From NCBI RefSeq assembly GCF_000004825.1, contig NW_008805066.1, positions 1,054,001 through 1,118,000 of the forward strand: a stretch of DNA of 64,000 nucleotides. Direction: 5' to 3'. Below, piece by piece: positions 1,379 through 22,320 of the stretch. The notes under the pieces are model-generated. The model was given only the letters and a program-made list of their open reading frames with translations, did no database searches and was not told the DNA's origin. The stretch is from Heterostelium album PN500 (Eukaryota; Evosea; Eumycetozoa; Acytosteliales; Acytosteliaceae). Each line of letters starts with the position of its first letter. The first letter of the stretch is position 1. The position numbers and the translations under genes are program-made.

Positions 1379-3130
1379 TTAATATGCAATTGAAGTAGAT
1401 GCACACCAATTTCTATTGTGACTAATAATATTTCTAAAGAATAGTTCACATTGATTGGATTCAATTGAATATTTGAAATTATCATCATTAGATGAACCAT
1501 ATGAATAGATATAACTTGATGTTGGTGATTCTCGATGATACTTCACAAATGGATACTGTGCATTTGCGAGAGGAATAGCATTGAGATTGATTGTTTGTTT
1601 GGTTTCAACATTGTATTTGATGAATCGTTTGTTTGTCACATCTAATATGAAGAAATTTCCATTGTTATCATGACATGCTGATGTTGGTGTAATGTCAATT
1701 TGATGATCTGTTATCGTTCTATTTGTTAAATCGAATTGAAATATCAAATTTAGACTCCATGGTATTGAATATAATGAACCTTTGAAGATCATTGATGATA
1801 CTTGCATACCATATCCAACAGGTAATTGATGATATGATTCAAATTTCATTGTTTTGATGTTGAATCGATCAATTCTATTCGATATATTTAGACCATTAAC
1901 TAAATAGATATGATCTTGACCATCATAACAAACTGATATATCATAATCACCATTGATTCCTTCGATATCACCAATATGTTCAATTGATTTCGATTTGGCT
2001 GATATTATAATCCATTTGTTTTCATTGTATTCTCCACCGAATATATAGATATATTCACCAATTGAAACAATCGAGTTGGATGTAGAAGAAAATTGATAAT
2101 CAAACTGTAATTCTTCAATTGAATTGTTGTTTGATGTGTTGATCAGTGTTGCTCCTTTTGATTCGTGTGTTATGAAAATATAAGATTGTTTATTATCATT
2201 GTTGTTTGTTGTTGTTGTTGTTGTATTAATTGATTCAGCTGATTCAATGTTATCAAATTTAATTGATTGTTTAATGATTGAATTCAATTGATTGAAATCA
2301 GGTTGTTTGATTGATAATTTATATGATGATAATCTTAAGTTATTATTGTCTGTGTTTGTTGTTGATTCATTGAATTGATTGTTGTATTTATGAATGATAT
2401 CTAATAATAATGATGTTGAATCTGAGGAATCTTGTTTGAGAAGTTCATCAATATTGAATAAATCAAGATGTTCATTGAATAATGTTTGATTATTATGATT
2501 GATGAATGATTGTAATGATGAACTTGTTGTTATTGATTCCATTATTGTTGTTGTTGAATATAATGTTGTTGTATCTGGTATAATTGAGGTATCTTCGTTA
2601 TTACTATTATTATTACTACTGCTACTATTATCATTATTTAACTTATTAAATATATTGATAATATTTATTAAATATTTCAAATTCATGATATTATTATCGA
2701 TTTGATTTGTGATTGTATGTTTATCATTGATAATATCTCTTTGTAGTTTATGTTCTTCTCTGATTAGATATTGATGTAATTGTTCAAAGTGTTGTTTGAT
2801 ATCATTCTCTGTTGTTGATAATCTTTGATATCTGGATGTCGATGATCTTAATGATTCCCATATTGATTTAAGTTTATTCTTGATTTGTGAAATGAAATTA
2901 TTATTATTATCACTATCATTATTAATATGATTATTGGTTGTTTTTTCAGTGTCAATAATATGATCTAAATTCAAAGTACTTAATGATTCCTTGATGTCGT
3001 CAATATGTTCCCATGAATGATCAGGATGATCTTTGTAATGACTGGTTACACATTTTGAACACATCAAACAATTACATTGATAACAAATGAATTCGTGTGA
3101 TTTCTGATGATTCAAACATTTATTTGTCAT
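1379..3130 (-). CDS. B-box / coiled-coil / beta-propeller protein, array copy 1
   Basis: Intronless, 583 residues. The N-terminus is a B-box-type zinc finger (C5, H8, C16, C19, C24, C27, H31/H35, H38). Residues of roughly 90-170 are charged and helical, compatible with a coiled coil; Asn- and Ser-rich linkers follow. From about 315 to the end lie six kelch-like repeats of about 45 residues (for example GEYIYIFGG and GQDHIYLVNG), consistent with a six-bladed propeller. This is the TRIM-NHL layout without a RING finger; whether it acts with a ubiquitin ligase is unknown. No signal peptide or membrane helix is visible, so it should be cytosolic. The start is fixed by agreement with all paralogues (MT[NMI]KCLNHQ). 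It is the leftmost of six tandem copies and looks intact. Its propeller carries the patch variation described in the findings. Confidence 0.88.
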   Translation of the reverse strand: MTNKCLNHQKSHEFICYQCNCLMCSKCVTSHYKDHPDHSWEHIDDIKESLSTLNLDHIIDTEKTTNNHINNDSDNNNNFISQIKNKLKSIWESLRSSTSRYQRLSTTENDIKQHFEQLHQYLIREEHKLQRDIINDKHTITNQIDNNIMNLKYLINIINIFNKLNNDNSSSSNNNSNNEDTSIIPDTTTLYSTTTIMESITTSSSLQSFINHNNQTLFNEHLDLFNIDELLKQDSSDSTSLLLDIIHKYNNQFNESTTNTDNNNLRLSSYKLSIKQPDFNQLNSIIKQSIKFDNIESAESINTTTTTTNNNDNKQSYIFITHESKGATLINTSNNNSIEELQFDYQFSSTSNSIVSIGEYIYIFGGEYNENKWIIISAKSKSIEHIGDIEGINGDYDISVCYDGQDHIYLVNGLNISNRIDRFNIKTMKFESYHQLPVGYGMQVSSMIFKGSLYSIPWSLNLIFQFDLTNRTITDHQIDITPTSACHDNNGNFFILDVTNKRFIKYNVETKQTINLNAIPLANAQYPFVKYHRESPTSSYIYSYGSSNDDNFKYSIESNQCELFFRNIISHNRNWCASTSIAY

Positions 3131-3190
3131 TATTAACTGTGTTTAACTTTCACCACTTCGAATACTTTAATTAATCATTTCAAAACTAAT
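3131..3190 (-). promoter_or_regulatory. Conserved 5' leader of the B-box genes
   Basis: The 35-60 bases upstream of the start codon are almost the same in copies 1, 2, 4, 5 and 6 (read on the minus strand: TTCGAAGTGGTGAAAGTTA, then AACACAGTTAATA before the ATG). It has diverged in copy 3 and is not recognisable upstream of the plus-strand copy. This supports the chosen start codons and suggests shared expression. No specific factor site is recognised. Confidence 0.5.
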
Positions 3191-3289
3191 TAATGATCAC
3201 AGATGTTAGCTTGCTTAATCATGAATTCAAAAAAATTTGTAAAAAAATTGAAAAAAACAAAAAAAAAATAAATTTTTAAGTTCCTAGCG

Positions 3290-4680
3290 GTGACTAATAA
3301 AATGAGTGTATGACGAATAAATAAATATGAAAAAGTACAGATTATAATAATAATGTATAAGTTTATTTCAATTAAAAGAGGTGATCTGACATGTTAGGTG
3401 ATCACCCAACTAATAGTTACTATGATCGAGATAAGTAAGGCCACCATATTGATCAATACTCGATGCTGTGAGAAGGCAAAGAGGCATATCTTCCACACAG
3501 ACAACGATTTACTCTTGAATAATGTACCTTCAAGACAACTCTCTGGACTGTTGGAGTGCATATCCATCTCATCTCCTCGATTAAAAACCTGGCTATGGTT
3601 CAGTTATCACCGGCCAAGTGGATGTAAGAGATGCTTTCTATTATTACTACAATAACCTAAATTCACGAGTCTAATGTGACGTTGTACCGCGACAAACTCC
3701 TTGATCACTGACCCATTCCTTCTACTGGTACTGCTGGTTTGTTCTCAATGCGTTTGTCTCTGTAGATTGACTGAGTTTGTATTTGTCGGTATACCAGAAT
3801 GAATCTAATCAATGTCAATGCAAAGAAGTTCTTATGTTCATGCTATGATGTTCTTTCGTGTAAGTGCTTGTCAATGGCATTCCTTTTGACCGCTTAGATA
3901 TCTAAACTAAATCTATGTTATTGATTTTAATGGATTGTTTTACCAGAGCCATTCTATACTGATAAATAAAACAAAGTTCAGCTGAACGTCTAGTTCCACT
4001 CTTTGCCAATGATCAATGATGATGCTACGCTGCACCAAGTCTTTCTTCGACGAGCTCGTGGATCTTGTCCTCGGTTTGTACGACTTGCTTAATCTACTTC
4101 CTTGATCATGTCGTTACTTACAGAGCTATCGATAACTCGGTAGATTTCTACTGTTAATGAGTGGTGGTACGTTGGTGTGCTGTATAACTCTGTATGGTTG
4201 ACGTACAGGAACTATCATGCATAACAGACTGCTCATGGTATACACATCAGGTTATCTAGTGGAGAGCAATCAATCTGAAACATTGAATGCTGTCAACTTT
4301 CATGATCAATACCAATCACTTCATTGTGTGCTGTCAGTAGATCTACTACGAATGTCATCTATGATAACAATTGGTTCAGCAATACTTAAATCTCACTCAA
4401 TGATAAATATTGTGGTTATAACTTACAAGTATATAACTACTTTACAATAAACTTCTCTGCTGGTTCAAGAGTCTGTTAAAAGAACTAAAATACCTCACTG
4501 TTGCTGCTGTTATCATTCGATCTATAAGCTTTATAAACAGTAATGTTGACTGATGTTAAATCACGACATGTTAGTAAGAATTTGGAAAATGACGACACGT
4601 TCACCAATATTGAACATACATATTTACAACTTAATATCATTAATTTCTTTTATATAATGCAAGAGGAAGGTTGGGAGTTT
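3290..4680 (-). repeat. Array repeat module upstream of copy 1 (decayed gene remnants)
   Basis: A segment of about 1.3 kb that recurs, more or less complete, upstream of each B-box copy (7500-8165, 10990-11470, 14720-15980, 18530-19215, 22440-23100) and partly at 590-890. It is less AT-rich than true spacer. Short protein-like stretches occur on the minus strand in changing frames, for example LTLIRFILVYR (near 3800) and FSSFNRLLN (near 4470), and recur in other copies. It therefore looks like the remains of an unrecognised gene duplicated together with the B-box gene. I cannot assign a family and do not claim it is mobile. Confidence 0.6.
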
Positions 4681-5613
4681 CGTTTTGGGTTAAAATTATA
4701 AAAAAATAAAATTTAATAAATTTAAAACATACAAATAGTTAATCTATTAATCTTATCTGTACAGACCCAAATTAAAAAATACAAAACACAGACATTATTA
4801 CACTCATTTCTCTTTATTCACTTTGACCTATATATATATGTATTATCATCGTATCTCCATAAATACCACCTTTTCTTAGTCCATGACTATGATTATATTC
4901 ACTTTATATATGACTATCGCAATTTCTATCTTTATATCTGTGTTTTATTAAAGTACATGTTCGATCCACGCCACCCATTTGAATCTCTATTTAAATATCA
5001 CTTTTACTTCATATAAATGACTATTCATCCTATTTAGACTCTATATATTGTGATCTGTGATATTACTACTTACAATTAGTTAACCAAAACCAATCCTTTT
5101 TGTTTTAATGGCTAAACTTTTTTGATCAAGCTTTACTCTTTTTTTCCTCTGTTTTACTTGACAATATTATTAGTTAAAACATCTAAATACAACGTAAAAC
5201 AATATAGGTATATTTATTTTTTGAAACAAATAATTGTTAATTAAAATAAAAATAAAGAAAATAAAAAAATTGGGTGTCCATATTAAAAAAAATTTATGCG
5301 ATTCCCATATAAAAATTTTCACTTGTGATAATAATGTATAAGTTTATTTCAATTAAAAGAGTGATCTGATATGTTCGGTGATCACCCAACTAATAGTTTT
5401 TTTACTCTAGTAACTAATCATCTATTACCTCATATGTGTCTATACAAATAAACTTCTCTGAACCTTGTTAGAAAATTTTAAAAAAAGAAAATGAAGGATA
5501 ATAATATTTTATAATTAAATATAGAATTTAAAAGTGTTTTATTATACTATCTATATCTACAGAGAAGGATATATTTCTCTATTAAATTGTGTATTTATAA
5601 GCTATTATGTTAA
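4640..5613. other. Intergenic region; start is a long direct repeat of 23080-23240
   Basis: Bases 4640-4800 are nearly identical to 23080-23240, at the far right edge of the array, and may mark a duplication boundary. A short copy of the module start recurs at about 5325-5400. The remainder is AT-rich with no gene seen. Confidence 0.55.
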
Positions 5614-7358
5614 TTAATATATATTCGATGTAGATGCACACAACGTTCTACTGTAATTAATAATATCTCTAAAGAAAGGTTCACATTGATTGGTTTCAAT
5701 TGAATATTTGAAATTACGATCATTAGATGCACCAAATGAATAGATATAACTTGATGTTGGTGATTCTCGATGATACTTCACCCATGGATAATGTGCATTT
5801 GCGAGAGGAATAGCATTGAGATTGATTGTTTGTTTGGTTTCAACATTGTATTTGATGAATCGTTTGTTATTCCAATCTAATATAAAGAAATTTCCATTGT
5901 TATCATGACATCCTGAGAATGGTATAATGTCAATTTGATGATCTGTTATCGTTCTATTTGTCAAATCGAATTGAAACATCTTTTTTTGATTGTATGATAC
6001 TGAATATAATGAACCTTTGAAGATCATTGATAATACTTGATGACCATATCCAACAGGTAATTGATGATATGATTCAAATTTCATTGTCTTGATGTTGAAT
6101 CGATCAATTCTATTATTATTTTTGGCACCATTAACTAAATAGATATGATATTGACCATCATAACAAACTGATATATTATAATCACCATCTATTCCTTCGA
6201 TATCACCTTTATGTTTAATTGATTTCGATTTCATTGATATTTTAATCCATTTGTTTGGATTTAAATATCCACCGAATATATAGATATATTTACCAATTGA
6301 AACAATCGAGTTGTATGTACCATTAAATGGATAATCAAACTTTAATTCTTCAATTGAATTGTTGTTTGATGTGTTGATAAGTGTTGCTCCTTTTGATTCG
6401 TGTGTTATGAATATATATGATTGTTTATTATCATTGTTGTTTGTTGTTGTTGTTGTATTTATTGATTCAGTTGATTCAATGTTATCAAATTTGATTGATT
6501 GTTTAATGATTGAATTCAATTGATTGAAATCAGGTTGTTTGATTGTTAATTTATATGATGATAATCTTAAGTTATTATTATCTGTGTTGTTGTTGATTCA
6601 TTGAATTGATTGTTGTATTTATGAATGATATCTAATAATATTGATGATGAATCTGAGGAATGTTGTTTGAGAAGTGAATCAATATTGAAATAATTATTAT
6701 ATTCATTGAATAATGTTTGATTATTATGATTGATGAATGATTGTAATGATGAACTTGTTGTTATTGATTCCATTATTGTTGTTGTTGAATATAATGTTGT
6801 TGTATCTGGAATATTTGAGGTATCTTCGTTACTATTATTTTCATTATTATTTAATTTATTAAATAGTTTTATAATATTTATTAAATATTTCAAATTCATT
6901 AGATTATTATCGATTTGATTTGTGATTGTATGTTTATCATTGATAATATCTCTTTGTAGTTTATGTTCTTCTCTGATCAGATATTGATGTAATTGTTCAA
7001 AGTGTTGTTTGATATCATTCTCTGTTGTTGATAATGATTGATATCTGGATGTCGATGATCTTAATGATTCCCAAAGATATTTAAGTTTATTATTGATTTG
7101 TGATTTGAAACGAAACTCATTATTATTATTATTTTTATTTTCATTATTAATATGATTATTTGTTGTTGTGGTGTCAATAATATCATCTAATTTTAATGTA
7201 CTCAATGAATGTTTGATGTCATCGATATGTTCACATTGATCGAAATGATCAGGATGATCTTTGCTATGAATGAAGATACATTTTGAACACATCAAACAAT
7301 TACATTGATAACAAATGAATTCGTGTGATTTCTGATGATTCAAACATTTCATTGTCAT
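5614..7358 (-). pseudogene. B-box / coiled-coil / beta-propeller gene, array copy 2 (frameshifted)
   Basis: The gene matches its neighbours over its whole length, but one T is missing near 6590 relative to the other copies (GTGTTGTTG where they have GTGTTTGTTG). The first frame (6567-7358, 263 residues: B-box, coiled coil) ends there. The propeller is open for a further 301 residues in the next frame (5614-6519). With a single lesion and an otherwise open second half, this is either a very recent pseudogene or a sequencing or assembly error. The propeller has its own set of patch residues. The B-box cysteines and histidines are intact, with a small insertion (HFDQC) after the finger that recurs in the plus-strand copy at 60500. 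Confidence 0.82.
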
Positions 7359-7499
7359 TATTAACTGTGTCTAACTTTCACCACTTCGAATATTATAATT
7401 AATCTTGTTAAAAACTAATTAATGATCATAGAAGCAAATTTTTTTCTTGAAAGTCTAAATCACAAAAAATTTGAAAAAAACAAAAAAATTAAATTTTTA

Positions 7500-8165
7500 A
7501 GTTCATAACGTTATTGATCCTCGAGTATTGTACCTCATTCAAATGTTAGCGGTGATTAATAAAATGAGTGTATGACGAATAAATAAATATGAAAGTACAG
7601 ATTATAATAGTGGATAAGTTTAAATTAAAAGAGTGACTGACATGTGAGGTGATCACCTAACTAACTTTAGTTACTATGCTTGAGATAAGTAAGGACACCA
7701 TATTGAACAGGTCGATAACTGTTGGAGTGCAGATCCAACTCATCACCTCGATTAAACACCATGCTTATGGTTCAATTGTCACCGTCCAAGTGGACTTAAG
7801 AGATTCTATTATTACTACAATAACCTAAATTCACGAGTTGAGCACTGACCCATTCCTTCTACTGGTACTGCTGGATTGTTTTCCACGTGTTTGACACTGT
7901 GTAGATTGCCTATGTATTGCGTGACTGCATTGAAAGAACGAGATTGTATATGTCGGTATACCAGAATGAATCTAATCAATGTCAATGCTAAGAAGTTTTT
8001 CTGCATTTGTAGGGTGTTGTCCGATGGTATTCCGTTTAACTGCTTAATCCGACCAATGTACCTGTCATTCCTTTGATCGTATATATAATTATGTTGTTAT
8101 TGCTGACTTACAGGAACTATCATGCATAACAGACTGCTCATGGTATACGCATCAGGCTATTTAGT
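7500..8165 (-). repeat. Array repeat module upstream of copy 2
   Basis: A shorter version of the module at 3290-4680, closest to the copy at 18530-19215 (shared ACATGTGAGGTGATCACC start and ACTGTTGGAGTGCAGATC). The minus-strand stretch 7815-8006 is open for 63 codons and includes LTLIRFILVYR and NPAVPVEGMGQ, the longest uninterrupted piece of the remnant. No family is recognised. Confidence 0.6.
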
Positions 8166-9874: not shown

Positions 9875-10873
9875 TTAAAATGAAATTGAAGTAGATGCAC
9901 ACCATTGTCTATTGTGATTAGTAATATCTCTAAAGAATGGTTCACATTGATTGGTTTCAATTGAATATTTGAAATTACAATTACTGGAAAAGCCAAATGA
10001 ATAGATATAACTTGATGTTGGTGATTCTCGATGATACTTAACACATGAATACTCTCCGTTTGTTAAAGGAATAGCTTTTAGATAGATTGTTTGTTTGGTT
10101 TCAACATTGTATTTGATGAATCGTTTGTTTGTTCTATCTAATATGAAGAAATTTCCATTGTTATCATGACATGCTGAGTATGGTGTAATGTCAATTTGAT
10201 GATCTGTTATCGTTCTATTTGTTAAATCGAATTGAAATAGCTTATTTTGATCGAACGATATTGAATATAATAAACCTTTGAAGATCATCGAAGATACTTG
10301 CCAACCATATCCAATAATTAATTGATGATATGATTCAAATTTCATTGTTTTGATGTTGAATCGATCAATTCTATTCTTATTATTGGCACCATTAACTAAA
10401 TAGATATGATCTTGACCATCATAACAAACTGATATAAAATAATCGCCTTCTATTCCTTCGATATCACCAATATGTTCAATTGATTTCGATTTCATTGATA
10501 TTTTAATCCATTTGTTTTCATTGGTTAATCCACCGAATATATAGATATATTCACCAATTGAAACAATAGCGGAGTATGTATTTATAAATTGATAATCTAA
10601 CTGTAAATGTTCAACCGAATAGTTGTTTGATGTGTTGATCAGTGTTGCTCCTTTTAGTTGGTGTGTTATGAAAATATAAGATTGTTTATTATCATTGTTG
10701 TTTGTTGTTGTTGTATTTATTGATGATGATTTTGATTCAATCTTATCAACTTTATCTGCATGACCAGGATGATCTTTGTAATGACTGGTTACACATTTTG
10801 AACACATCAAACAATTACATTGATAACAAATGAATTCGTGTGATATTTGATGATATAAACATTTATTTGTCAT
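9875..10873 (-). CDS. Short B-box / beta-propeller protein, array copy 3 (coiled coil deleted)
   Basis: 332 residues against about 585 in its neighbours. The B-box (C5, H8, C16, C19, C24, C27) is followed after about residue 40 directly by the linker and propeller (KQSYIFITH). About 250 codons holding the coiled coil and Asn-rich linkers are missing, and the frame is kept across the join. The propeller is complete with all six repeats and its own patch residues (for example a Trp codon at the GYGxQVSS site). It could be a functional short form or an early stage of decay; the open frame and the intact zinc ligands favour function. The upstream leader is more diverged than in other copies. It would probably not oligomerise through the coiled coil. 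Confidence 0.8.
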   Translation of the reverse strand: MTNKCLYHQISHEFICYQCNCLMCSKCVTSHYKDHPGHADKVDKIESKSSSINTTTTNNNDNKQSYIFITHQLKGATLINTSNNYSVEHLQLDYQFINTYSAIVSIGEYIYIFGGLTNENKWIKISMKSKSIEHIGDIEGIEGDYFISVCYDGQDHIYLVNGANNKNRIDRFNIKTMKFESYHQLIIGYGWQVSSMIFKGLLYSISFDQNKLFQFDLTNRTITDHQIDITPYSACHDNNGNFFILDRTNKRFIKYNVETKQTIYLKAIPLTNGEYSCVKYHRESPTSSYIYSFGFSSNCNFKYSIETNQCEPFFRDITNHNRQWCASTSISF

Positions 10874-10989
10874 ATTTACTTGTATTTAACTTTTATTACT
10901 TCAAATATTATAACCTTATTAAACCTTAATTAATGATCATAGAATCTTAGCTTGTCTCGATTTAAAAAAAATTTGCAAAAAAAATAAAT

Positions 10990-11470: not shown

Positions 11471-11555
11471 AACATTCAAAAACAAAAAAAACATACACAA
11501 GGCAGAGAGTTTTTAGTTAACAAATATAAATAATTTTATTCAATTAATTAATTTG

Positions 11556-12488: not shown

Positions 12489-14291
12489 TTAATATGCAAT
12501 TGAAGTAGATGCACACCATTGTCTATTGTGATTAATAATATCTCTAAAGAATGGTTCACATTGATTGGTTTCAATTGAATATTTGAAATTATCATCATTA
12601 GATTCTCCATATGAATAGATATAACTTGATGTTGGTGATTCTCGATGATACTTTACAAATGATTGTTGTCCATTGGTGAGAAGAGCAGCATTGAGATTGA
12701 TAGTTTGTTTGGTTTCAACATTGTATTTGATGAATCGTTTATTTGTTCTATCAAATATGAAGAAATTTCCATTGTTATCATGACATCCTGATTTTGGAAT
12801 AAAGTCAATTGGATGATCTGTTATCGTTCTATTTGTCAAATCGAATTGAAATATCAAATTTTGATTCCATGATATTGAATATAATGAACCTTTGAAGATC
12901 ATTGATGATATTTGCACACCATATCTAACAGGTAATTGATGATATGATTCAAATTTCATTGTTTTGATGTTGAATCGATCAATTCTATTCTTTGTACTGT
13001 GACCATTCACTAAATAGATATGATCTTGACCATCATAACAAACTGATTTTAAACAATCACCTTTGATTCCTTCGATATTACCAATATGTTCAGCTGATTT
13101 CGATTTCATTGATATTTTAATCCATTTGTTTGGATTGCTTGATCCACCGAATATATAGATATATTCACCAATTGAAACAATCGAGGAGTATGTAGCATTA
13201 AATTTATAATCAAACTGTAATTCTTCAATTGAATTGTTGTTTGATGTGTTGATCAGTGTTGCTCCTTTTTCATCGTGTGTTATGAAAATATAAGATTGTT
13301 TATTATCATTGTTGTTGATTGTTGTTGTTGTTGTATTTATTGATTCAGTTGATTCAATGTTATCAAATTTGATTGATTGTTTAATGATTGAATTCAATTG
13401 ATTGAAATCAGGTTGTTTGATTGATAATTTATATGATGATAATCTTAAGTTATTATTGTCTGTGTTTGTTGTTGATTCATTGAATTGATTGTTGTATTTA
13501 TGAATGATATCTAATAATAATGATGATGAATCTGAGGAATCTTGTTTGAGAAGTTCATCAATATTAAATAAATCAAGATGTTCATTGAATAATGTTTGAT
13601 TATTATGATTGATGAATGATTGTATTGATGAACTTGTTGTTATTGATTCCATTATTGTTGTTGTTGAATATAATGTTGTTGTATCTGGAATAATTGAGGT
13701 ATCTTCGTTATTACTATTATTATTACCACTGCTACTATTATCATCACTATTATTAATATTATTTAATTTATTAAATATATTGATAATATTTATTAAATAT
13801 TTCAAATGATTAATATTATTATCGATTTGATCTGTGATTGTATGTTTATCATTGATAATATCTCTTTGTAGTTTATGTTCTTCTATGATTAGATATTGAT
13901 GTAATTGTTCAAAGTGTTGTTTGATTTCATTCTCTGTTGTTGATAATGATTGATATCTGGATGTCGATGATCTTAATGATTCCCAAAGAGATGTAATTTT
14001 ATAGTTGATTTGTGAAATGAAATTATTACTATTAATATTTTTAGTACTATCATTACTATTACTATTATTATCACTATCATTATTAATATGATTATTGGTT
14101 GTTTTTTCAGTGTCAATAATATGATCTAAATTCAAAGTACTTAATGAATCCTTGATGTCGTCAATATGTTCCCATGAATGATCAGGATGATCTTTGTAAT
14201 GAATGGTTACACATTTTGAACACATCAAACAAATACATTGATAACAAATGAATTTGTGTGATTTCTGATGATTCAAACATTTATTTGTCAT
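12489..14291 (-). CDS. B-box / coiled-coil / beta-propeller protein, array copy 4
   Basis: Intronless, 600 residues, the longest full copy of the array. It has the same order of parts as copy 1: B-box at 5-38 (one change, C21 kept and N20 to I), helical region about 95-175, Asn/Ser-rich linkers that account for the extra length, and the six-repeat propeller in the last 270 residues. The patch residues differ (for example PKS where others have PTS, PYS, PWS or PFS; FGGSSNPN). No lesion is visible. It is flanked by its own module copy at 14720-15980, with a short element inserted between the two. Confidence 0.88.
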   Translation of the reverse strand: MTNKCLNHQKSHKFICYQCICLMCSKCVTIHYKDHPDHSWEHIDDIKDSLSTLNLDHIIDTEKTTNNHINNDSDNNSNSNDSTKNINSNNFISQINYKITSLWESLRSSTSRYQSLSTTENEIKQHFEQLHQYLIIEEHKLQRDIINDKHTITDQIDNNINHLKYLINIINIFNKLNNINNSDDNSSSGNNNSNNEDTSIIPDTTTLYSTTTIMESITTSSSIQSFINHNNQTLFNEHLDLFNIDELLKQDSSDSSSLLLDIIHKYNNQFNESTTNTDNNNLRLSSYKLSIKQPDFNQLNSIIKQSIKFDNIESTESINTTTTTINNNDNKQSYIFITHDEKGATLINTSNNNSIEELQFDYKFNATYSSIVSIGEYIYIFGGSSNPNKWIKISMKSKSAEHIGNIEGIKGDCLKSVCYDGQDHIYLVNGHSTKNRIDRFNIKTMKFESYHQLPVRYGVQISSMIFKGSLYSISWNQNLIFQFDLTNRTITDHPIDFIPKSGCHDNNGNFFIFDRTNKRFIKYNVETKQTINLNAALLTNGQQSFVKYHRESPTSSYIYSYGESNDDNFKYSIETNQCEPFFRDIINHNRQWCASTSIAY

Positions 14292-14369
14292 TATTAACTG
14301 TGTTTAACTTTCACCACTTCGAATATTATAATTAATCTTTTCAAAACTAATTAATGATCACAGATGTTA

Positions 14370-14625
14370 GCTTGTTGGCGGACATAAGTCACAATTCAAA
14401 TTTTTTTACGTTTTTTGTGAAATTTGGGGTTTTTGTGACCACAAAAACCACAAAAAAATTAAAATTAATTAATATAATTAAATATCATTCAAAAATTAAT
14501 ATGAGGCAATAAGTTTATTAACTACTTAGAGAAATTTTACACCAAAGCTTAGCTATAAAAAAATGAATTTTCAAAAAACAAATTACTTGTGGTTTTTGTG
14601 TTTTATTATGACTTATGTTCGCTTG
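14370..14625. mobile_element. Short MITE-like insertion with inverted ends
   Basis: Compared with copy 1 (TTAGCTTGCTTAATCATGA near 3208), the same place in copy 4 is split by about 250 extra bases. The insert begins near GGACATAAGTCACAA and ends with the inverse, TTATGACTTATGTTC. CACAAAAACCACA also occurs inverted near both ends. GCTTG is present on both sides (14370-14374, 14621-14625) and once at the empty site, as expected for a 5-base target duplication. There is no coding capacity. It fits a non-autonomous DNA transposon; the superfamily is unknown. Confidence 0.6.
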
Positions 14626-14719
14626 CTTGAACATGAATTCAAAAAAATTGGATCAAAATTGGAAAAAAATTGGAAAAAAAAACAAAAAAAAATAAATTTT
14701 TAAGTTCCTTGAGGTGACT

Positions 14720-15980
14720 AATAAAATGGGAATATGACGAATAAATATGAAAAAGTACAGATTATAATATTAATGTATAAGTTTATTTCAATTAAAAGAG
14801 TGATCTGACATGTTAGGTGATCACCCAACTAATAGTTACTATGCTCGAGATAAGTAAGGCCACCATATTGATCAATACTCGATGCTGTGAGAAGGTAAAG
14901 AGGCATATCTTCCACACAGACAACGATGGAAGATATGCAGACAACGATTTACTCTTGAATAATGTACCTTCAAGACAACTCTCTGGATTGTTGGAGTGCA
15001 TATCCATCTCCTCGATTTTTAACCTGGCTATGGTTCAGTTATCACCGGCCAAGTGGATGTAAGAGATGCTTTCTATTATTACTACAATAACCTAAATTCA
15101 CGAGTCTAATGTGATGTTGTACCGCAACAAACTCCTTGAGCACCTGACCCATTCTTTCTACTGGTACTGCTGGCTTGTTCTCAATGCGTTTGTCTCTGTG
15201 TAGATTGACTGAGTTTGTATTTGTCGGTATACCAGAATGAATCTAATCAATGTCAATGCAAAGAAGTTCTGTTCGTTCTATGATGTTCTTTCGTGTAAGT
15301 GCTGGTCAATACCATTCAGTTTGACTGCTTCGATATCTAAATCTATATCTATGTTATTGATTGTAATGGATTGTTTTACCAGAGCCATTATATACTGACA
15401 AATAAAACAAAGATCATCTGAACACATCTAAATGATCAATGATGACGCTGCAATGCATCAAGTCTTTTCTTCGATGAGCTCGTGTATCTTGTCTGGGTTT
15501 GTAAGATTTTCTTAATCTACCTCCTCGGCTGATATTAACCTTACCGGTCGATCGGAGCTATACACTAACTCGGTAGATCTCTACTGTTACTGAGTGGTGG
15601 TACATTGGTGTGCTGTATAACTCTGTATGACTGACGTACAGGAACTATCATGCTTAACATACTGATCATGGTATACACATCAGGTTATCTAGTGGAGAGC
15701 AATCAATCCGAAACATTGTATGCTGTCAACTTTCATGATCAATACCAAATCACTTCATTGTGTGCTGTATAAATAATATTCTTTATATTAAGTACACTTT
15801 GATTATTCACTGTTGCAGCTGTTATCAATTGATCTATCTGCTTAATAAACAGAAATGTTGACTGGTAATAAATCATGACATGTGTAAGAAATTGGAAAAT
15901 GACGACACTTTACACAAATATTGAACATACATATTTACAACACTTTATATCATTAATTTCTTGTTTGATCGTTTAAAAAA
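14720..15980 (-). repeat. Array repeat module upstream of copy 4
   Basis: Closest to 3290-4680, with an extra internal duplication (GGAAGATATGCAGACAACGA) near 14927-14950. Protein-like minus-strand pieces include SITINNIDIDLDIEAVKLNG (near 15320-15390) and LTLIRFILVYR (near 15240). No family is recognised. Confidence 0.6.
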
Positions 15981-16555
15981 AATAAAAATAATAATTTGAT
16001 CACCAAAAACAGTTAGTTATTTTTATTATTCATTATTTCATTAACTAGTTTATTAGTTTCAGTAATAATTATATTGTTATCATTTTAGTAATAAATATTT
16101 TATTATTTCTATAGGTTTATAAACAAAAGAATAGAATATCATATATTAACGCTTGTTAGACAGATAAATTTCATCAACTAGTTTACTTATTGTTTAATCT
16201 ACACTTTATCTTTTGTGTCTTTATCGATTTTTAAAAATTATCTATTCATTAATTCCTTGTTATCTCATTTTATTTATATACAAATTTTTTTTTGTTGACC
16301 AATTCACCCTTTTTGAGCATCGATTATTCAATGGTTTTTTTATTTATTCATATTGATTCTTTATTTTATATATTTATTGATTACTTATTTTCAATAAATC
16401 AAACAATACTAACATTTATTAATTGATTTATCTATAGATAGATTTAACTTTGTTAAGATAGATCAAGAGTGATCACACAAAAAGAAAGCATATTCTAAAC
16501 AAATAAAGTCGGTTCATATCTTATTTTAGTTCTAAATCTTTTTTTATTAGATAAT
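15981..16555. other. AT-rich spacer similar to 8270-8700
   Basis: Shares the TTATTTCTATAGGTTTATAA and CTTTATCGATTTTTAAAA-type stretches with 8340-8530, and is the inverse of 20190-20490. No gene is seen. Confidence 0.5.
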
Positions 16556-18316
16556 TTATAATGTAATTGAAGTAGATGCACACCAATCTCTATTGTGATT
16601 AATAATATCTCTAAAGGATGGTTCACATTGATTGGTTTCAATTGTATATTTGAAATTATGGTCATTATTTATACCAAATGAATAGATATAACTTGATGTT
16701 GGTGATTCTCGATGATACTTCACATGTATATACTTTCCATTTGCGAAAGGAACATCATTGAGATTGATTGTTTGTTTGGTTTCAACATTGTATTTGATGA
16801 ATCTATGGTTTTTTCTATCCAATATGAAGAAATTTCCATTGTTATCATGACATCCTGAGTATGGTGTAATATCAATTCGATGACCTGTTATCGTTCTATT
16901 TGTTAAATCGAATTGAAACATCAAATTTTGATCGAACGATACTGAATATAATGAACCTTTGAAGATCATTGATGATATTTGCACACCATATCTAACAGGT
17001 AATTGATGATATGATTCAAATTTCATTGTCTTGATGTTGAATCGATCAATTCTATTCTTTATATTGTGACCATTCACTAAATAGATATGATCTTGACCAT
17101 CATAACAAACTGATATTAAACAATCACCTTCTATTCCTTGGATATAACCAATATGTTCAATTGATTTCGATTTCATTGATATTTTAATCCATTTGTTTTC
17201 ATTGAAAAATCCACCGAATATATAGATATATTCACCAATTGAAACAATCGAGTTGTATGTATTTATAAATTGATAATCAAACTTTAATTCTTCAATTGAA
17301 TTGTTGTTTGATGTGTTGATCAGTGTTGCTCCTTTTGATGTGTGTGTTATGAAAATATAAGATTGTTTATTATCATTGTTGTTTGTTGTTGTATTTATTG
17401 GTGATTCAGTTGATTGAATGTTATCAAGTTTGATTGATTGTTCAATGATTGAATTCAATTGATTGAAATCAGGTTGTTTGATTGATAATTTATATGATGA
17501 TAATCTTAAGTTATTATTGTCTGTGTTTGTTGTTGATTCATTGAATTGATTGTTGTATTTATGAATGATATCTAATAATAATGATGATGAATCTGAGGAA
17601 TCTTGTTGGAGAAGTTCATCAATATTAAATAAATCAAGATGTTCATTGAATAATGTTTGATTATTATGATTGATGAATGATTGTAATGATGAACTTGTTG
17701 TTATTGATTCCATTATTGTTGTTGTTGAATATAATGTTGTTGTATCTGGTATAATTGATGTATCTTCGTTATTACTATTATTATTACCACTGGTACTATC
17801 ATTATTTAACTTATTAAATATATTGATAATATTTATTAAATATTTCAAATTCATAATATTATTATCGATTTGATTTGTGATTGTATGTTTATCATTGATA
17901 ATATCTCTTTGTAGTTTATGTTCTTCAATGATCAGATATTGATGTAATTGTTCAAAGTGTTGTTTGATATCATTCTCTGTTTTTGATAATGATTGATATC
18001 TGGATGTCGATGATCTTAATGATTCCCAAAGAGATTTAAGTTTATTGTTGATTTGTGATTTGAAATTATTACTATTATTATTATTATTATTAGTACTATC
18101 ATTATTAATATGATTATTGGTTGTTTTTTCAGTGTCAATAATATCATCTAATTTTAAAGTACTCAATGAATGTTTGATGTCGTCAATATGTTCCCATTCT
18201 GAATTATCAGGATGATCTTTGTAATGACTGGTTACACATTTTGAACACATCAAACAATTACATTGATAACAAATGAATTTGTGTGATCTTTGATGATTTA
18301 AACATTTGATTGTCAT
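16556..18316 (-). CDS. B-box / coiled-coil / beta-propeller protein, array copy 5
   Basis: Intronless, 586 residues, intact. B-box ligands C5, H8, C16, C19, C24, C27 are present, and a two-residue difference follows the finger (DNSEWEH). The coiled-coil and linker region is nearly the same as in copies 1 and 4. The six-repeat propeller differs from copy 6 mainly at the patches (FGGFFNEN against FGGSNNEK; PYS against PWS; NRDWC against DRAWC). The C-terminal STSITL ending is shared with copy 6, so the two are probably sister copies. Confidence 0.88.
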   Translation of the reverse strand: MTIKCLNHQRSHKFICYQCNCLMCSKCVTSHYKDHPDNSEWEHIDDIKHSLSTLKLDDIIDTEKTTNNHINNDSTNNNNNNSNNFKSQINNKLKSLWESLRSSTSRYQSLSKTENDIKQHFEQLHQYLIIEEHKLQRDIINDKHTITNQIDNNIMNLKYLINIINIFNKLNNDSTSGNNNSNNEDTSIIPDTTTLYSTTTIMESITTSSSLQSFINHNNQTLFNEHLDLFNIDELLQQDSSDSSSLLLDIIHKYNNQFNESTTNTDNNNLRLSSYKLSIKQPDFNQLNSIIEQSIKLDNIQSTESPINTTTNNNDNKQSYIFITHTSKGATLINTSNNNSIEELKFDYQFINTYNSIVSIGEYIYIFGGFFNENKWIKISMKSKSIEHIGYIQGIEGDCLISVCYDGQDHIYLVNGHNIKNRIDRFNIKTMKFESYHQLPVRYGVQISSMIFKGSLYSVSFDQNLMFQFDLTNRTITGHRIDITPYSGCHDNNGNFFILDRKNHRFIKYNVETKQTINLNDVPFANGKYIHVKYHRESPTSSYIYSFGINNDHNFKYTIETNQCEPSFRDIINHNRDWCASTSITL

Positions 18317-18458
18317 TATTAACTGTGTTTAACTTTCACCACTTCGAATATTATAATAAATCTTTTTAAAAACTAATTAATGATCAAAGATCCAAATAAG
18401 TTAGGTTGATCAAAAAAAATTTGTAAAAAAAAAAACAAAAAAATTAAATTTTTACTTT

Positions 18459-18515
18459 CATAACACGTTACATATATATCTTTGTAACGTATATAGATAT
18501 ATGTAACGTGTTATG
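18459..18515. repeat. 19-base perfect inverted repeat inserted in a module copy
   Basis: Arms CATAACACGTTACATATAT (18459-18477) and the exact inverse (18497-18515) around a 19-base centre that repeats GTAACGTATATA. The related copy near 7500 reads CATAACGTTATTGATCC without it, so about 50 bases were added here. It would form a strong hairpin. Confidence 0.65.
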
Positions 18516-18529
18516 GAATCTCGCGTATT

Positions 18530-19215
18530 GTGCCTCATTCAAATGTTAGCGGTGACTAATAAAATGAGTGTATGACGAATAAATAAATATGAAAATACAG
18601 ATTATAATAGTGGATAAGTTTATTTAAATTAAAAGAGTGACTGACATGTGAGGTGATCACCCAACTAACTTTAGTTACTCTGCTCGAGATAAGTAAGGAC
18701 ACCATATTGAACAGGTCAATAACTGTTGGAGTGCAGATCAAACTCATCACCTCGATTAAACACAATGCATATGGTTCAATTGTCACCGTCCAAGTGGATG
18801 TAAGAGATTCTATTATTACTACAATAGCCTAAATTCACGAGTTGAGCACTGACCCATTCCTTCTACTGGTACTGCTGGATTGTTTTCTACGTGTTTGACT
18901 CTGTGTAGATTGCCTGTGAGTCACGTGACTGCATTGAAAGAACGAGATTGTATATGTCGGTATACCAGAATGAATCTAATCAATGTCAATGCTAAGAAGT
19001 TTTTCTGCATCAGGTGTTGTCCGATGGTATTCCGTTTAACTGCTTAATCCGACCATGTACCTGTCATTCCTTTGAGAGATATCGACAATAGCTAGATCGT
19101 ATGTATAACTCTGTTGCTATTGCTGACGTACAGGAACTATCATGCATAACAGACTGCTCATGGTATACGCATCAGGCTATTTAGTGGCAGCTAAACAATC
19201 TGAAACATTGTATGC
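18530..19215 (-). repeat. Array repeat module upstream of copy 5
   Basis: Near-identical to 7500-8165 over most of its length. The minus-strand piece around 18556-18786 is open for 76 codons (LCLIEVMSLICTPTVID), and LTLIRFILVYR recurs near 18980. No family is recognised. Confidence 0.6.
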
Positions 19216-20559
19216 AGTCAAGTAGTGCTACTACGAATTCAAATACATTCATTCGCCAAGCACACACCGGATGTAGTAGAGATGTTATCATTATCTTTAA
19301 ATTCTATGACATGTACAACCAATAGACCACCTCAGAGATGACCACTTTTGTGTATTCTACAATGATCTATTATTACAATTAATTGCGTTAGTAATGATCA
19401 AATCTCTATGTTAAATATTGTGGTTATAACTTACAAGTATGGAACTACATTCGAATATTCTTCAAATAAATTTAATATTTTGACTTAAAAAACAAGTAAT
19501 AACATCTATAAAATACAAATAATGATATTATAACTATTAAATATGAAGTTCCAAATCAAAATGATAATTTTTAAAAAAAATAAAAAAAAAATAATTTGTG
19601 ATCCACACCTGTGATCATCCAAAACAATTATTTTATTATTTATTATTTCACATCAACTGCAGTATAGTTTAGTGTTATTTGTTTCAATAATTACAATGTT
19701 ATCATTTTAGAGTACCCTAACCTTATTAAACCTTAATTAATGATAGAATCTTAATTTGTATCACAGCCACACCAAAAAATTATATTAAAATTTATTGAAG
19801 TTTCAAAAAGTTAATAGTTGTCTGTGGCCGTGGCGCCTCGCCCGGCAGCCACACCAAAAATCCAAATACTAGGAATATGACGTATTGGAACTAAATTAAA
19901 ACATCTAAATACAACGTAAAAAAATATAGGTATATTTAAATTATTTGTTAGAATATGTTAGTTGGACTATTATATAACGATAGTTGTTAGTTAATAATAC
20001 TTACTCTGTCTCCAATATTAATCTAATATAATACTATCCAAAAGTGTTCAAAGCTTTTTGTTTGAGATTTAGAAGTGATAGTGGAGTGGGAATAGCATTA
20101 CATTTCAGAGTTTCTAAGCAATGATTTAATCGAGAAATTGTCAGCAAATGCCATCTCTGGACAAATAAGGTAGATCTTCTTCTTTTTTCAAAGAATGCTT
20201 TCTTGAATATCTTTTTGTGAGATCACTCTTGATCTATCTTAACAAAGTTAAATATATCTATTCATAGATCAATTATATATAGAATAAAGAAAGAATCTAT
20301 ATATTAGTGAATGAATAAATAAATGACCATTGAATAATCGATGCTTAAAAAGGGTGTATTGGTCAACAAAAAAAATTTGTAAATAAATAAAATGAGATAA
20401 CAAGTAATTAATGAATAGATAATTTTTAAAATCGATAAAGACACAAAAGATAAAGTGTAGATTAAAAACTAGTTGATGAAATAATATAATAAAATAACTA
20501 ACTATTTTTCACATATATTATATCTTATTTTAGTTCTAAATCTTTTTTTATTAGATAAT
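19216..20559. other. Intergenic region with GC-rich patch and inverted-repeat arm
   Basis: Bases 19757-19860 hold CAGCCACACCAAAAA twice, about 80 bases apart, around a GC-rich stretch (GGCCGTGGCGCCTCGCCCGG) very unlike its surroundings. Bases 19960-20480 are the inverse of 8560-9065. On the reverse strand the core reads as a coding-like piece (IPTPLSLLNLKQKAL), another gene or element remnant. No intact gene is seen. Confidence 0.55.
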
Positions 20560-22320
20560 TTATAATGTAATTGAAGTAGATGCACACCATGCTCTATCTT
20601 TATTAATAATATCTCTAAAGGATGGTTCACATTGATTGGATTCAATTGAATATCTGAAATTATCATCATTTTTATTACCAAATGAATAGATATAACTTGA
20701 TGTTGGTGATTCGAGATGATACTTCACATATATATACTTTCCATTTGCGAAAGGAACATCATTGAGATTGATTGTTTGTTTGGTTTCAACATTGTATTTG
20801 ATGAATCGTTTGTTTTTTATATCTAAAATGAAGAAATTTCCATTGTTATCATGACATCCTGACCATGGTGTAATCTCAATTTGATGATCTATTATCGTTC
20901 TATTTGTTAAATCGAATTGAAACATCTTTTTTTGATTCCATGATATTGAATATAATGAACCTTTGAAGATCATTGATGATACTTGTCTATCGTATCCAAC
21001 AGGTAATTGATGATATGATTCAAATTTCATTGTCTTGATGTTGAATCGATCAATTCTATTCTTTGTACTGTGACCATTCACTAAATAGATATGATCTTGA
21101 CCATCATAACAAACTGATATCAAATAATCACCTTTGATTCCTTCGATATCACCAATATGTTCAATTGATTTCGATTTCATTGATATTTTAAGCCATTTTT
21201 TTTCATTATTTGATCCACCGAATATATAGATATATTCACCAATTGAAATAATCGAGTTGAATGTACAATAAAATTGATAATCAAACTGTAATTCTTCAAT
21301 TGAATTGTTGTTTGATGTGTTGATCAGTGTTGCTCCTTTTCCATTGTGTGTTATGAAAATATAAGATTGTTTATTATCATTGTTGTTTGTTGTTGTTGTT
21401 GTATTTATTGGTGATTCAGTTGATTTAATTCGATCAAGTTTGATTGATTGTTCAATGATTGAATTCAATTGATTGAAATCAGGTTGTTTGATTGATAATT
21501 TATATGATGATAATCTTAAGTTATTATTGTCTGTGTTTGTTGTTGATTCATTGAATTGATTGTTGTATTTATGAATGATATCTAATAGTAATGATGATGA
21601 ATCTGAGGAATCTTGTTTGAGAAGTTCATCAATATTGAAATAATTATGATGTTCATTGAATAATGTTTGATTATTATGATTGATGAATGATTGTAATGAT
21701 GAACTTGTTGTTATTGATTCCATTGTTGTTGTTGAATATAATGTTGTTGTATCTGATATTATTGATGTATCTTTAATATTACTATTATTATCACTAATAT
21801 TATCATTATTATTATTATTTAATTTATTAAATATATTGATAATATTTATTAAATATTTTAAATTCTTGATATTATTATCGATTTGATTTGTGATTGTATG
21901 TTTATCATTGATAATATCTCTTTGTAGTTTATGTTCTTCAATGATTAGATATTGATGTAATTGTTCAAAGTGTTGTTTGATATCATTCTCTGTTGTTGAT
22001 AATCTTTGATATCTGGATGTCGATGATCTTAATGATTCCCATATAGATTTAAGTTTATTGTTGATTTTTGATTTGAAATTATTACTATTATTATTTGTAC
22101 TATCATTATTAATATGATTATTGGTTGTTTTCTCAGTGTCAATAATATCATCTAAATTCAATGTACTTAATGAATGTTTGATGTCATCGATATGTTCCCA
22201 TTCTGAATGATCAGGATGATCTTTGTAATGACTGGTTACACATTTTGAACACATCAAACAATTACATTGATAACAAATGAATTTGTGTGATTTCTGATGA
22301 TTTAGACATTTCATTGTCAT
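20560..22320 (-). CDS. B-box / coiled-coil / beta-propeller protein, array copy 6
   Basis: Intronless, 586 residues, intact, the last of the minus-strand array. B-box at 5-38, helical region, Asn-rich linkers (shorter and different from copies 1, 4 and 5: NNNNNDNISDNNSN), and the six-repeat propeller. One framework change (KYHLES for KYHRES) breaks an otherwise constant motif. Patch residues are aromatic or charged at several sites (PWS, GYDRQVSS, NKDRAWC). The GYDRQ patch is shared with the plus-strand copy at 60500 although the rest of the patches differ, suggesting exchange of short tracts. Confidence 0.88.
   Translation of the reverse strand: MTMKCLNHQKSHKFICYQCNCLMCSKCVTSHYKDHPDHSEWEHIDDIKHSLSTLNLDDIIDTEKTTNNHINNDSTNNNSNNFKSKINNKLKSIWESLRSSTSRYQRLSTTENDIKQHFEQLHQYLIIEEHKLQRDIINDKHTITNQIDNNIKNLKYLINIINIFNKLNNNNNDNISDNNSNIKDTSIISDTTTLYSTTTMESITTSSSLQSFINHNNQTLFNEHHNYFNIDELLKQDSSDSSSLLLDIIHKYNNQFNESTTNTDNNNLRLSSYKLSIKQPDFNQLNSIIEQSIKLDRIKSTESPINTTTTTNNNDNKQSYIFITHNGKGATLINTSNNNSIEELQFDYQFYCTFNSIISIGEYIYIFGGSNNEKKWLKISMKSKSIEHIGDIEGIKGDYLISVCYDGQDHIYLVNGHSTKNRIDRFNIKTMKFESYHQLPVGYDRQVSSMIFKGSLYSISWNQKKMFQFDLTNRTIIDHQIEITPWSGCHDNNGNFFILDIKNKRFIKYNVETKQTINLNDVPFANGKYIYVKYHLESPTSSYIYSFGNKNDDNFRYSIESNQCEPSFRDIINKDRAWCASTSITL

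What the first reader, a model, noticed from the sequence alone, without database searches (positions are those of the whole stretch)
1379..22320. Propellers of the B-box array vary by whole codons at about twelve patches, two per blade, on one predicted face
Read side by side, the seven propellers (six here, one at 60500-62275) are almost identical except at short patches. Examples, codon by codon: at P-x-S-[AG]-CHD the middle codon is ACA, TTC, TAC, AAA, TAC, TGG and TTC in copies 1-7; at GY-[GD]-x-Q it is ATG, CAT, TGG, GTG, GTG, AGA, AGA; at NR-x-WC it is AAT, ACG, CAA, CAA, GAT, GCA, GCG; after FGG the pair is EY, YL, LT, SS, FF, SN, ST; before VKYH it is F, W, C, F, H, Y, F. Neighbouring codons barely change, even at silent sites. 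Each blade has one patch just before its first strand and one after its second strand (for example before QVSSMIFKG and after SLYS). In a propeller, these are the DA and BC loops, which lie on the same face. The replacements are rich in aromatic, charged and polar residues, as in binding sites. The inference is a protein scaffold whose ligand-binding face is diversified, perhaps for self/non-self or pathogen recognition inside the cell. I know of no description of this for this family.
Basis: partly seen in the sequence, partly recalled or inferred. Interest (0 to 1): 0.88.

Follow-up and report, generated by a model that had tools for sequence, protein, structure and literature searches.

The report
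Amoeba propeller proteins with diversified face
A stretch of what is probably a social amoeba genome carries seven copies of a B-box/Kelch gene whose predicted propellers differ mainly in a ring of positively selected residues on one loop face, the pattern expected of a small built-in repertoire of recognition proteins, although what they recognise is unknown.

Summary
Confirmed, with corrections. Seven B-box/Kelch copies (six in tandem at 1379-22320, one at 60500-62275) each carry a 267-270-residue propeller, predicted as a six-bladed Kelch fold (pLDDT 79.6; KEAP1 TM 0.76). Codon site models support positive selection: 2dlnL 157.6 without multi-nucleotide substitutions, 57.8 with them; simulated nulls gave at most 55.1 (that test is liberal) and 8.5 in 163 runs. 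Of 23 selected sites (P>0.9), 20 lie in DA/BC loops (92 residues), 0 in AB/CD loops (44), 3 in strands (134); with multi-nucleotide changes modelled 17, 0 and 1. Windows anchored on predicted strand ends are hit in 12 of 12 cases on the DA/BC face, 0 of 11 on the other. The N-terminal half shows no selection once multi-nucleotide changes are modelled. In known Kelch and WD40 recognition propellers this face binds ligand. Best reading: a TRIM-like but RING-less recognition family with a diversified ligand face, working like fungal HNWD and fish finTRIM. Not shown: ligand, immune or self/non-self role, isolate variation, gene conversion. 'Silent sites barely change nearby' is not upheld (2.2-fold higher near selected sites).

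The parts
1379..3130 (-). Copy 1, B-box / helical middle / Kelch propeller (583 aa); propeller codons at 1382-2191
5614..6519 (-). Copy 2, propeller half (ORF open); propeller codons at 5617-6426
6567..7358 (-). Copy 2, N-terminal half in another frame (B-box and helical middle); copy interrupted between the two ORFs
9875..10873 (-). Copy 3, short form (332 aa): B-box joined to propeller, middle region absent; propeller codons at 9878-10687
12489..14291 (-). Copy 4 (600 aa); propeller codons at 12492-13301, modelled by AlphaFold2
16556..18316 (-). Copy 5 (586 aa); propeller codons at 16559-17368
20560..22320 (-). Copy 6 (586 aa); propeller codons at 20563-21372
60500..62275 (+). Copy 7 (591 aa), 38 kb away and inverted; propeller codons at 61472-62272
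13272..13274 (-). Copy 4, selected site in BC loop of blade 1 (propeller residue 10)
   Evidence: P 0.999 (M8), 0.996 (with multi-nucleotide changes); loop from DSSP
13185..13187 (-). Copy 4, selected site in DA loop before blade 2 (residue 39)
   Evidence: P 1.000 / 0.959
13140..13142 (-). Copy 4, selected site in BC loop of blade 2 (residue 54)
   Evidence: P 0.999 / 0.973
13050..13052 (-). Copy 4, selected site in DA loop before blade 3 (residue 84)
   Evidence: P 1.000 / 1.000
12999..13001 (-). Copy 4, selected site in BC loop of blade 3 (residue 101)
   Evidence: P 1.000 / 0.997
12915..12917 (-). Copy 4, selected site in DA loop before blade 4 (residue 129)
   Evidence: P 1.000 / 0.995
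12867..12869 (-). Copy 4, selected site in BC loop of blade 4 (residue 145); not supported once multi-nucleotide changes are modelled
   Evidence: P 0.962 / 0.553
12792..12794 (-). Copy 4, selected site in DA loop before blade 5 (residue 170)
   Evidence: P 1.000 / 0.993
12747..12749 (-). Copy 4, selected site in BC loop of blade 5 (residue 185); not supported once multi-nucleotide changes are modelled
   Evidence: P 0.987 / 0.647
12657..12659 (-). Copy 4, selected site at the end of the DA loop, scored by DSSP as first residue of strand A of blade 6 (residue 215)
   Evidence: P 0.984 / 0.939
12603..12605 (-). Copy 4, selected site in BC loop of blade 6 (residue 233)
   Evidence: P 1.000 / 1.000
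12519..12521 (-). Copy 4, selected site in DA loop before the closing strand A of blade 1 (residue 261; low-confidence part of the model)
   Evidence: P 1.000 / 1.000

Best explanation
A tandemly duplicated family of TRIM-like, RING-less proteins in what is most likely a dictyostelid social amoeba. Each full-length copy has an N-terminal B-box-type zinc motif, a helical middle that probably oligomerises it, and a C-terminal six-bladed Kelch propeller. Natural selection has diversified residues around the start of strand A and the end of strand B of all six blades, that is the DA and BC loops which build one face, while the strands, the opposite face and the N-terminal half stay conserved. SHOWN by computation: the copies, the predicted fold, positive selection, its restriction to one face. 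INFERRED: that this face binds ligands, that different copies bind different ligands, and that the ligands are fast-changing foreign or non-self molecules met inside the cell (bacterial, viral or transposon proteins, or partner proteins after cell fusion), with the B-box/helical part assembling or signalling after binding.
For: Selection: M1a-M2a 2dlnL 157.6, M7-M8 169.6, M8a-M8 156.7, about 13% of sites with omega 9.9 (no multi-nucleotide changes); M1a-M2a 57.8, 75.7 and 52.6 on three trees when multi-nucleotide substitutions are modelled, against at most 8.5 in 163 simulations under that null. Five full-length copies alone: 112.2 / 27.6; each third of the propeller alone stays below P 0.05 in both tests. 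One face: selected sites 20 of 92 in DA/BC, 0 of 44 in AB/CD, 3 of 134 in strands, Fisher 4e-4 for DA/BC v AB/CD; with multi-nucleotide changes 17, 0 and 1 of 18 sites; strand-anchored windows 12 of 12 (10 of 12) v 0 of 11, 0 of 269 rotations. Copies differ at 7-12 of the 12 main sites. Fold: 24 strands in six blades; 49 of the 50 Foldseek rows shown are Kelch entries by title, counting designed SAKe proteins and KBTBD complexes as Kelch (recalled), KEAP1 TMq 0.76; Pfam Kelch_6 above cut-off in the 5 of 6 scanned proteins that include a propeller (copies 1 and 5 not scanned). DA/BC loops form the bottom, ligand-binding face in Kelch proteins (passages of PMC6650413). Domain contrast: N-terminal half omega 0.36, 2dlnL 0.00 with multi-nucleotide changes on its ML tree. 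No long hydrophobic segment in the five full-length copies (highest 19-residue mean 1.26).
Against: No ligand, expression or isolate data. Selection is measured among paralogs, so functional specialisation of endogenous adaptors would look alike. One copy is frame-broken and one lacks the middle. The structure rests on seven close sequences; two of the five models have pLDDT 58.6 and 47.5, and residues 253-270 are below 50. No coordinates were available, so faces follow from strand order. The site models handle recombination only through alternative trees and segments. Two of the 12 main sites fall to P 0.55 and 0.65 when multi-nucleotide changes are modelled. Without those changes the N-terminal half also scores (18.75; 39.6 on a star tree), and strands plus AB/CD loops keep a weak signal (14.4 / 6.4, P 0.04). 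Helical middle predicted with pLDDT 21-41 per ten-residue block.
Confidence: 0.6

Rival explanations
1. The copies are substrate adaptors that specialised on different endogenous proteins (for example a fast-evolving family of the amoeba's own), with no role in non-self or pathogen recognition. Selection then reflects neofunctionalisation after duplication.
For: Kelch propellers in BTB-Kelch ligases bind endogenous partners on the same face (PMC6650413 passages). 55% of stage-biased genes in lineage-specific dictyostelid expansions carry branch-site signals of positive selection (PMC8535579 section 3.5), so such signals are not special to immunity in these genomes.
Against: All six blades take part and copies differ at 7 to 12 of the 12 main sites, more like a repertoire than a few switched specificities; no E3 module was found: no BTB or F-box hit in 6 scanned proteins from 5 of 7 copies, no RING pattern.
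Confidence: 0.25
2. Targeted mutation or micro-conversion renews the patches (a hypermutation or cassette mechanism), and selection only filters the outcome.
For: Multi-nucleotide changes are needed by the models (delta 0.14, psi 0.03 in M0); silent change is 2.2-fold higher near selected sites, 4 of 269 rotations; propeller framework dS is below N-terminal dS in 15 of 15 pairs and at most 0.6 of it in 10 of 15, as if homogenised.
Against: At selected sites third positions change less than first and second (40 v 57 and 59%), and identical residues mostly keep identical codons (76 of 91 pairs), which argues against blind mutation. No propeller match beyond the seven copies was seen in the window by tblastn or blastn with copy 6 at E 1e-3. 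Codon-level tests of recombination are not significant (770 of 2000 permutations; best pair P 0.0065 of 21 pairs, not corrected).
Confidence: 0.1
3. Relaxed constraint: exposed loops of a decaying gene array drift freely.
For: Copy 2 is frame-broken and copy 3 is truncated.
Against: omega well above 1, M8a rejected and M1a rejected with multi-nucleotide changes; the loops of the other face are conserved (13 of 16 AB and 24 of 28 CD residues invariant); the signal persists in the five full-length copies; 102 of 134 strand residues are invariant and the B-box ligand pattern is kept in 7 of 7 copies.
Confidence: 0.03
4. Artefact of statistics or assembly: multi-nucleotide mutations, recombination or mis-assembled haplotypes create a false signal.
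For: The ordinary test is indeed liberal: under a null with multi-nucleotide changes it exceeded 5.99 in 145 of 163 simulations (max 55.1).
Against: Observed 157.6 exceeds that maximum; the corrected test stayed at or below 8.5 in 163 runs against 57.8 observed; the crowding of variable columns in DA and BC loops is seen without any codon model (34 of 40 columns with three or more residues); flanks differ between copies.
Confidence: 0.02

Closest known systems
Podospora anserina NWD/HNWD (HET-D, HET-E, HET-R) WD40 propellers (PMC1805685, PMC2873952, PMC12222747; passages seen)
   Same: Paralogous intracellular propellers whose positively selected codons lie in the strand d-to-a loop and the b-c turn, on one interaction face; conserved framework; family in one genome; pseudogene members.
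   Different: WD40 repeats nearly identical within a protein and exchanged as units, attached to NACHT NLRs; here six non-identical Kelch blades, no NACHT hit, variation between paralogs at fixed blades, concerted evolution not demonstrated.
finTRIM and TRIM5alpha B30.2 domains (PMC2657112; passages seen)
   Same: B-box/coiled-coil type protein with a C-terminal recognition domain whose loops are under positive selection in an expanded family.
   Different: Recognition domain is B30.2, not a propeller; RING present there, absent here.
BTB-Kelch substrate adaptors, KEAP1/KLHL, and K13 (PMC6650413; passages seen)
   Same: Kelch propeller; DA and BC loops form the ligand face.
   Different: No BTB hit here; in K13 the DA/BC pocket positions are the most conserved, here they are the most variable.
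TRIM37-like gene of Dictyostelium discoideum (PMC3503706; passages seen)
   Same: TRIM-type gene in a dictyostelid.
   Different: Reported as a single gene whose protein lacks the MATH domain; the paper's main text does not hold the word kelch.
tgrB1/tgrC1 of D. discoideum (PMC12324515; passages seen)
   Same: Dictyostelid multigene locus with diversification for self/non-self recognition.
   Different: Proteins that bind sister cells (cell-surface, recalled); the family here has no long hydrophobic segment and another fold (recalled for tgr).

Membership tests
Kelch propeller proteins | Kelch motifs above curated cut-off | tested here: met
   Kelch_6 64.7-76.1 bits (cut-off 25.3) in 5 of 6 scanned proteins; the sixth is copy 2's N-terminal ORF without propeller; copies 1 and 5 not scanned
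Kelch propeller proteins | Six-bladed four-stranded fold | tested here: met
   Predicted only: 24 strands, pLDDT 79.6; Foldseek KEAP1 TMq 0.76; C-terminal 18 residues low confidence
TRIM / RBCC | RING finger | tested here: not met
   No RING pattern in the reading frame of 7 of 7 copies (copy 2 read straight through its break in one frame) nor in open segments of 1.5 kb upstream; intron-split RING not excluded
TRIM / RBCC | B-box | tested here: inconclusive
   CxxH-x7-CxxC-x4-CxxC-x3-H-x3-H pattern in 7 of 7, but zf-B_box 15.5-17.4 bits, below the 24.1 cut-off, in the 5 of 6 scanned proteins that carry it
TRIM / RBCC | Coiled coil | tested here: inconclusive
   Long helix 111-168 in a model with pLDDT below 50 there
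TRIM / RBCC | C-terminal recognition domain | tested here: inconclusive
   A Kelch propeller is present; that it recognises ligands is inferred
HNWD / fungal NLR | NACHT domain | tested here: not met
   No NACHT hit at E<=1 in 6 scanned proteins from 5 of 7 copies
HNWD / fungal NLR | WD40 propeller | tested here: not met
   Kelch motifs, no WD40 hit
HNWD / fungal NLR | Positive selection at d-a and b-c loops of a propeller | tested here: met
   12 of 12 strand-anchored windows, 10 of 12 with multi-nucleotide changes
HNWD / fungal NLR | Concerted evolution of the propeller | tested here: inconclusive
   Lower silent divergence of framework than of N-terminal half, 15 of 15 pairs, but codon-level PHI 770 of 2000
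BTB-Kelch adaptors | BTB domain | tested here: not met
   No BTB hit at E<=1 in 6 scanned proteins from 5 of 7 copies

The most novel reading that the evidence does not exclude
Social amoebae keep a germline repertoire of cytosolic Kelch-propeller recognition proteins, a TRIM-like innate or allorecognition system in which all twelve DA/BC loops of a six-bladed propeller form one diversifiable binding ring, evolved independently of animal TRIMs and fungal NLRs.
Probability: 0.45. Interest if true: 0.88.

Novelty: new variant of a known kind. Interest (0 to 1): 0.77.

Why it matters
If true it adds a third scaffold (Kelch, beside WD40 and B30.2) on which a propeller or TRIM-type protein became a diversified intracellular receptor, in a lineage of bacteria-eating and cell-fusing amoebae whose intracellular recognition systems are little known (recalled). 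It also gives a ready list of residues to test, and a simple rule: two positions per blade, six blades, one face.

Tried and rejected
Relatives elsewhere: viral contigs (two peptide patterns, 245 stretches, none confirmed) and genome contigs (two patterns, 278 stretches, none confirmed) gave no relative; PDB sequence search with the profile gave 0. Foldseek against viral models gave 292 matches at E<=0.001, many of the 50 shown named Kelch or propeller proteins of phages, poxviruses and giant viruses, best TMq 0.73 among those shown: likeness of fold at 8-18% identity, not taken as kinship. No eukaryote genome collection is on hand, so no ortholog or isolate comparison was possible and the species was not identified; 'dictyostelid' rests on ComC_SSD, DUF7034 and DUF7035 hits of neighbouring genes and on recall of where those families occur.

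Gene conversion as shuffler of patches: a nucleotide PHI test looked decisive (0 of 1000) but vanished when each codon was one character and near neighbours were left out (770 of 2000; framework only 1806 of 2000). I therefore do not claim it. Longest shared runs: best P 0.0065 of 21 pairs, not significant after correction.

Automatic alignment of the six masked blades recovered the BC register (5 of 6 in one column) but not the DA register. The hand-set anchors (12 of 12) were chosen knowing the variable sites, so I rely on the DSSP-anchored windows; their widths (3 and 4 residues) were also set after the sites were known, which the rotation control only partly offsets. The 39 'patch' codons were likewise chosen by eye, so I use model-defined loops for the tests.

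Positive selection in the N-terminal half: 18.75 in the plain test (39.6 on a star tree), 0.00 with multi-nucleotide changes on the ML tree; rejected. Strands plus AB/CD loops: 14.4 / 6.4 (P 0.04), a weak remainder that I leave open. Full-length model is poor (pLDDT 47.1). Four intergenic ORFs gave no Pfam hit; no tRNA, no Rfam match at gathering score.

Paper searches (listings seen): 20 of 61 listed; 10 of 25; 10 of 215; 15 of 170. PMC3188802, PMC4931340 and PMC12324515 main texts hold neither kelch nor B-box. PMC8535579: passages and its section 3.5; main text holds neither word; supplements were not read.
Full report
WHAT IS THERE. Seven copies of one gene: six on the minus strand between 1379 and 22320 at 2.6-4.3 kb spacing and one on the plus strand at 60500-62275. 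Five code for full-length proteins of 583-600 aa. Copy 2 is split over two frames upstream of its propeller, and copy 3 joins the B-box straight to the propeller (332 aa). The N-terminus carries a CxxH-x7-CxxC-x4-CxxC-x3-H-x3-H B-box-type pattern in 7 of 7 copies, although Pfam's B-box model scores below its cut-off in the 5 scanned proteins that carry it. The C-terminus carries Kelch motifs (copies 1 and 5 were not scanned). Neighbouring genes with ComC_SSD, DUF7034 and DUF7035 domains point to a dictyostelid; the last step is recall.

THE OBSERVATION. The seven propellers align over 270 codons with one three-codon gap, in copy 7. Identity to copy 4 is 80-83%. Of 40 columns with three or more residues 32 lie in 12 patches. 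Copies differ at 7 to 12 of the 12 main sites, mean 9.7 over 21 pairs.

STRUCTURE. AlphaFold2 on the seven sequences gives 24 strands, four per blade in six blades, closed by the C-terminal strand (best model pLDDT 79.6, pTM 0.83; other models 77.7, 75.5, 58.6, 47.5; residues 253-270 below 50). 49 of the 50 solved matches shown are Kelch entries by title (SAKe designs and KBTBD complexes counted, recalled), KEAP1 at TMq 0.76.

SELECTION. I wrote codon site models with F3x4 frequencies. Without multi-nucleotide substitutions M1a-M2a gives 2dlnL 157.6, M7-M8 169.6, M8a-M8 156.7, with 13% of sites at omega 9.9 and 23 sites at P>0.9. Because the patches contain many two- and three-base changes, I added rates for these: M1a-M2a 2dlnL is then 57.8 on the ML tree, 75.7 on a star tree and 52.6 on an arbitrary alternative, with 18 sites at P>0.9. 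Simulation under a null with multi-nucleotide changes (163 of 200 queued runs finished) shows the plain test to be liberal (145 of 163 above 5.99, maximum 55.1), but the corrected test is well behaved (4 of 163 above 5.99, maximum 8.5). The five full-length copies alone give 112.2 and 27.6 (without, with); codons 1-90, 91-180 and 181-270 give 75.7/29.5, 59.1/9.2 (P 0.01) and 20.2/6.6 (P 0.04). So selection is secure overall and weakest in the last third.

ONE FACE. With regions taken from the model, not from the variability, the 23 sites fall 20 of 92 in DA/BC loops, 0 of 44 in AB/CD loops, 3 of 134 in strands; Fisher P 4e-4 for one face against the other, 7e-8 for DA/BC against all else. At the looser P>0.5 (37 sites) the counts are 30, 2 and 5. 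The 18 sites of the multi-nucleotide model fall 17, 0 and 1. Windows of 3 residues after each strand B and 4 up to each strand A contain a selected site in 12 of 12 cases, and in 10 of 12 with the multi-nucleotide model; no rotation of the mask reaches this (0 of 269 in both; best rotations 10 and 9), and 0 of 11 three-residue windows after strands A and C are hit. Window widths were set after the sites were known.

CONTROLS WITHIN THE GENE. The N-terminal half of six copies (312 of 342 columns kept; columns with more than one gap dropped) has omega 0.36; the plain test gives 18.75 (39.6 on a star tree, against 164.6 for the propeller of the same six), the multi-nucleotide test 0.00. Strands plus AB/CD loops keep a weak signal (14.4, or 6.4 with P 0.04).

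WHAT DOES NOT FIT THE SIMPLE PICTURE. Silent change is 2.2-fold higher around the selected sites (4 of 269 rotations), and propeller framework dS is lower than N-terminal dS in 15 of 15 pairs, at most 0.6 of it in 10 of 15. This could mean homogenisation of the framework with retention near patches, local mutation, or codon constraint; recombination tests at codon level do not settle it. Residue make-up at selected sites is only mildly aromatic and not enriched in charge.

HOW IT PROBABLY WORKS. The face under selection is the one used by KEAP1 and KLHL3 (PMC6650413, passages) and, in WD40 propellers of the NWD family, the d-a loops and b-c turns are the positively selected parts of the interaction surface in a domain that sets recognition specificity (PMC1805685, passages). 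In K13 the same pocket positions are the most conserved, so the reversal here is telling. I infer copy-specific ligand binding by the propeller, with the B-box and helical part for assembly, as in TRIM proteins. Foreign or non-self ligands are my favoured class because all six blades take part and the copies differ at most of the sites; endogenous partners remain a serious rival.

KNOWN OR NEW. As a mechanism it works like HNWD and finTRIM; it is a member of neither (no NACHT or WD40 hit, no RING pattern). I found no account of a diversified Kelch face in B-box proteins of amoebae in ten searches, four of them with cut listings. A survey of dictyostelid expansions reports zinc-ion binding among terms enriched in lineage-specific expansions and positive selection in 55% of stage-biased ones (PMC8535579 section 3.5), so members of this family may sit unnamed in such lists.

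Noticed in passing
5614-7358: Copy 2 is interrupted between two open halves in different frames, yet its propeller shares the diversified pattern.
   Followed up: partly
9875-10873: Copy 3 is an in-frame short form: B-box joined directly to the propeller, middle region absent.
   Followed up: partly
1-22500, between the copies: Intergenic DNA is a patchwork of blocks mostly 70-97% alike in changing order (for example 1.1 kb at 87% upstream of copies 1 and 4, 0.9 kb at 85% upstream of copies 2 and 5), suggesting block duplications.
   Followed up: partly
23270-25417, 30183-32738, 36021-38312 (-): Three ComC-like proteins (DUF7035, DUF7034, EGF-like, ComC_SSD), the last two nearly identical by eye apart from the length of a Ser/Thr repeat.
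   Followed up: no
54084-54782 (-): Transglycosylase SLT (lysozyme-like) domain followed by a long Ser/Gly repeat tail; possibly an antibacterial enzyme.
   Followed up: no
propeller codons within 3 of selected sites: Silent divergence about twice that elsewhere; cause unknown.
   Followed up: partly
63377-64000 (-): Fragment with a below-cut-off acyl transferase domain match, perhaps of a polyketide synthase running off the window.
   Followed up: no
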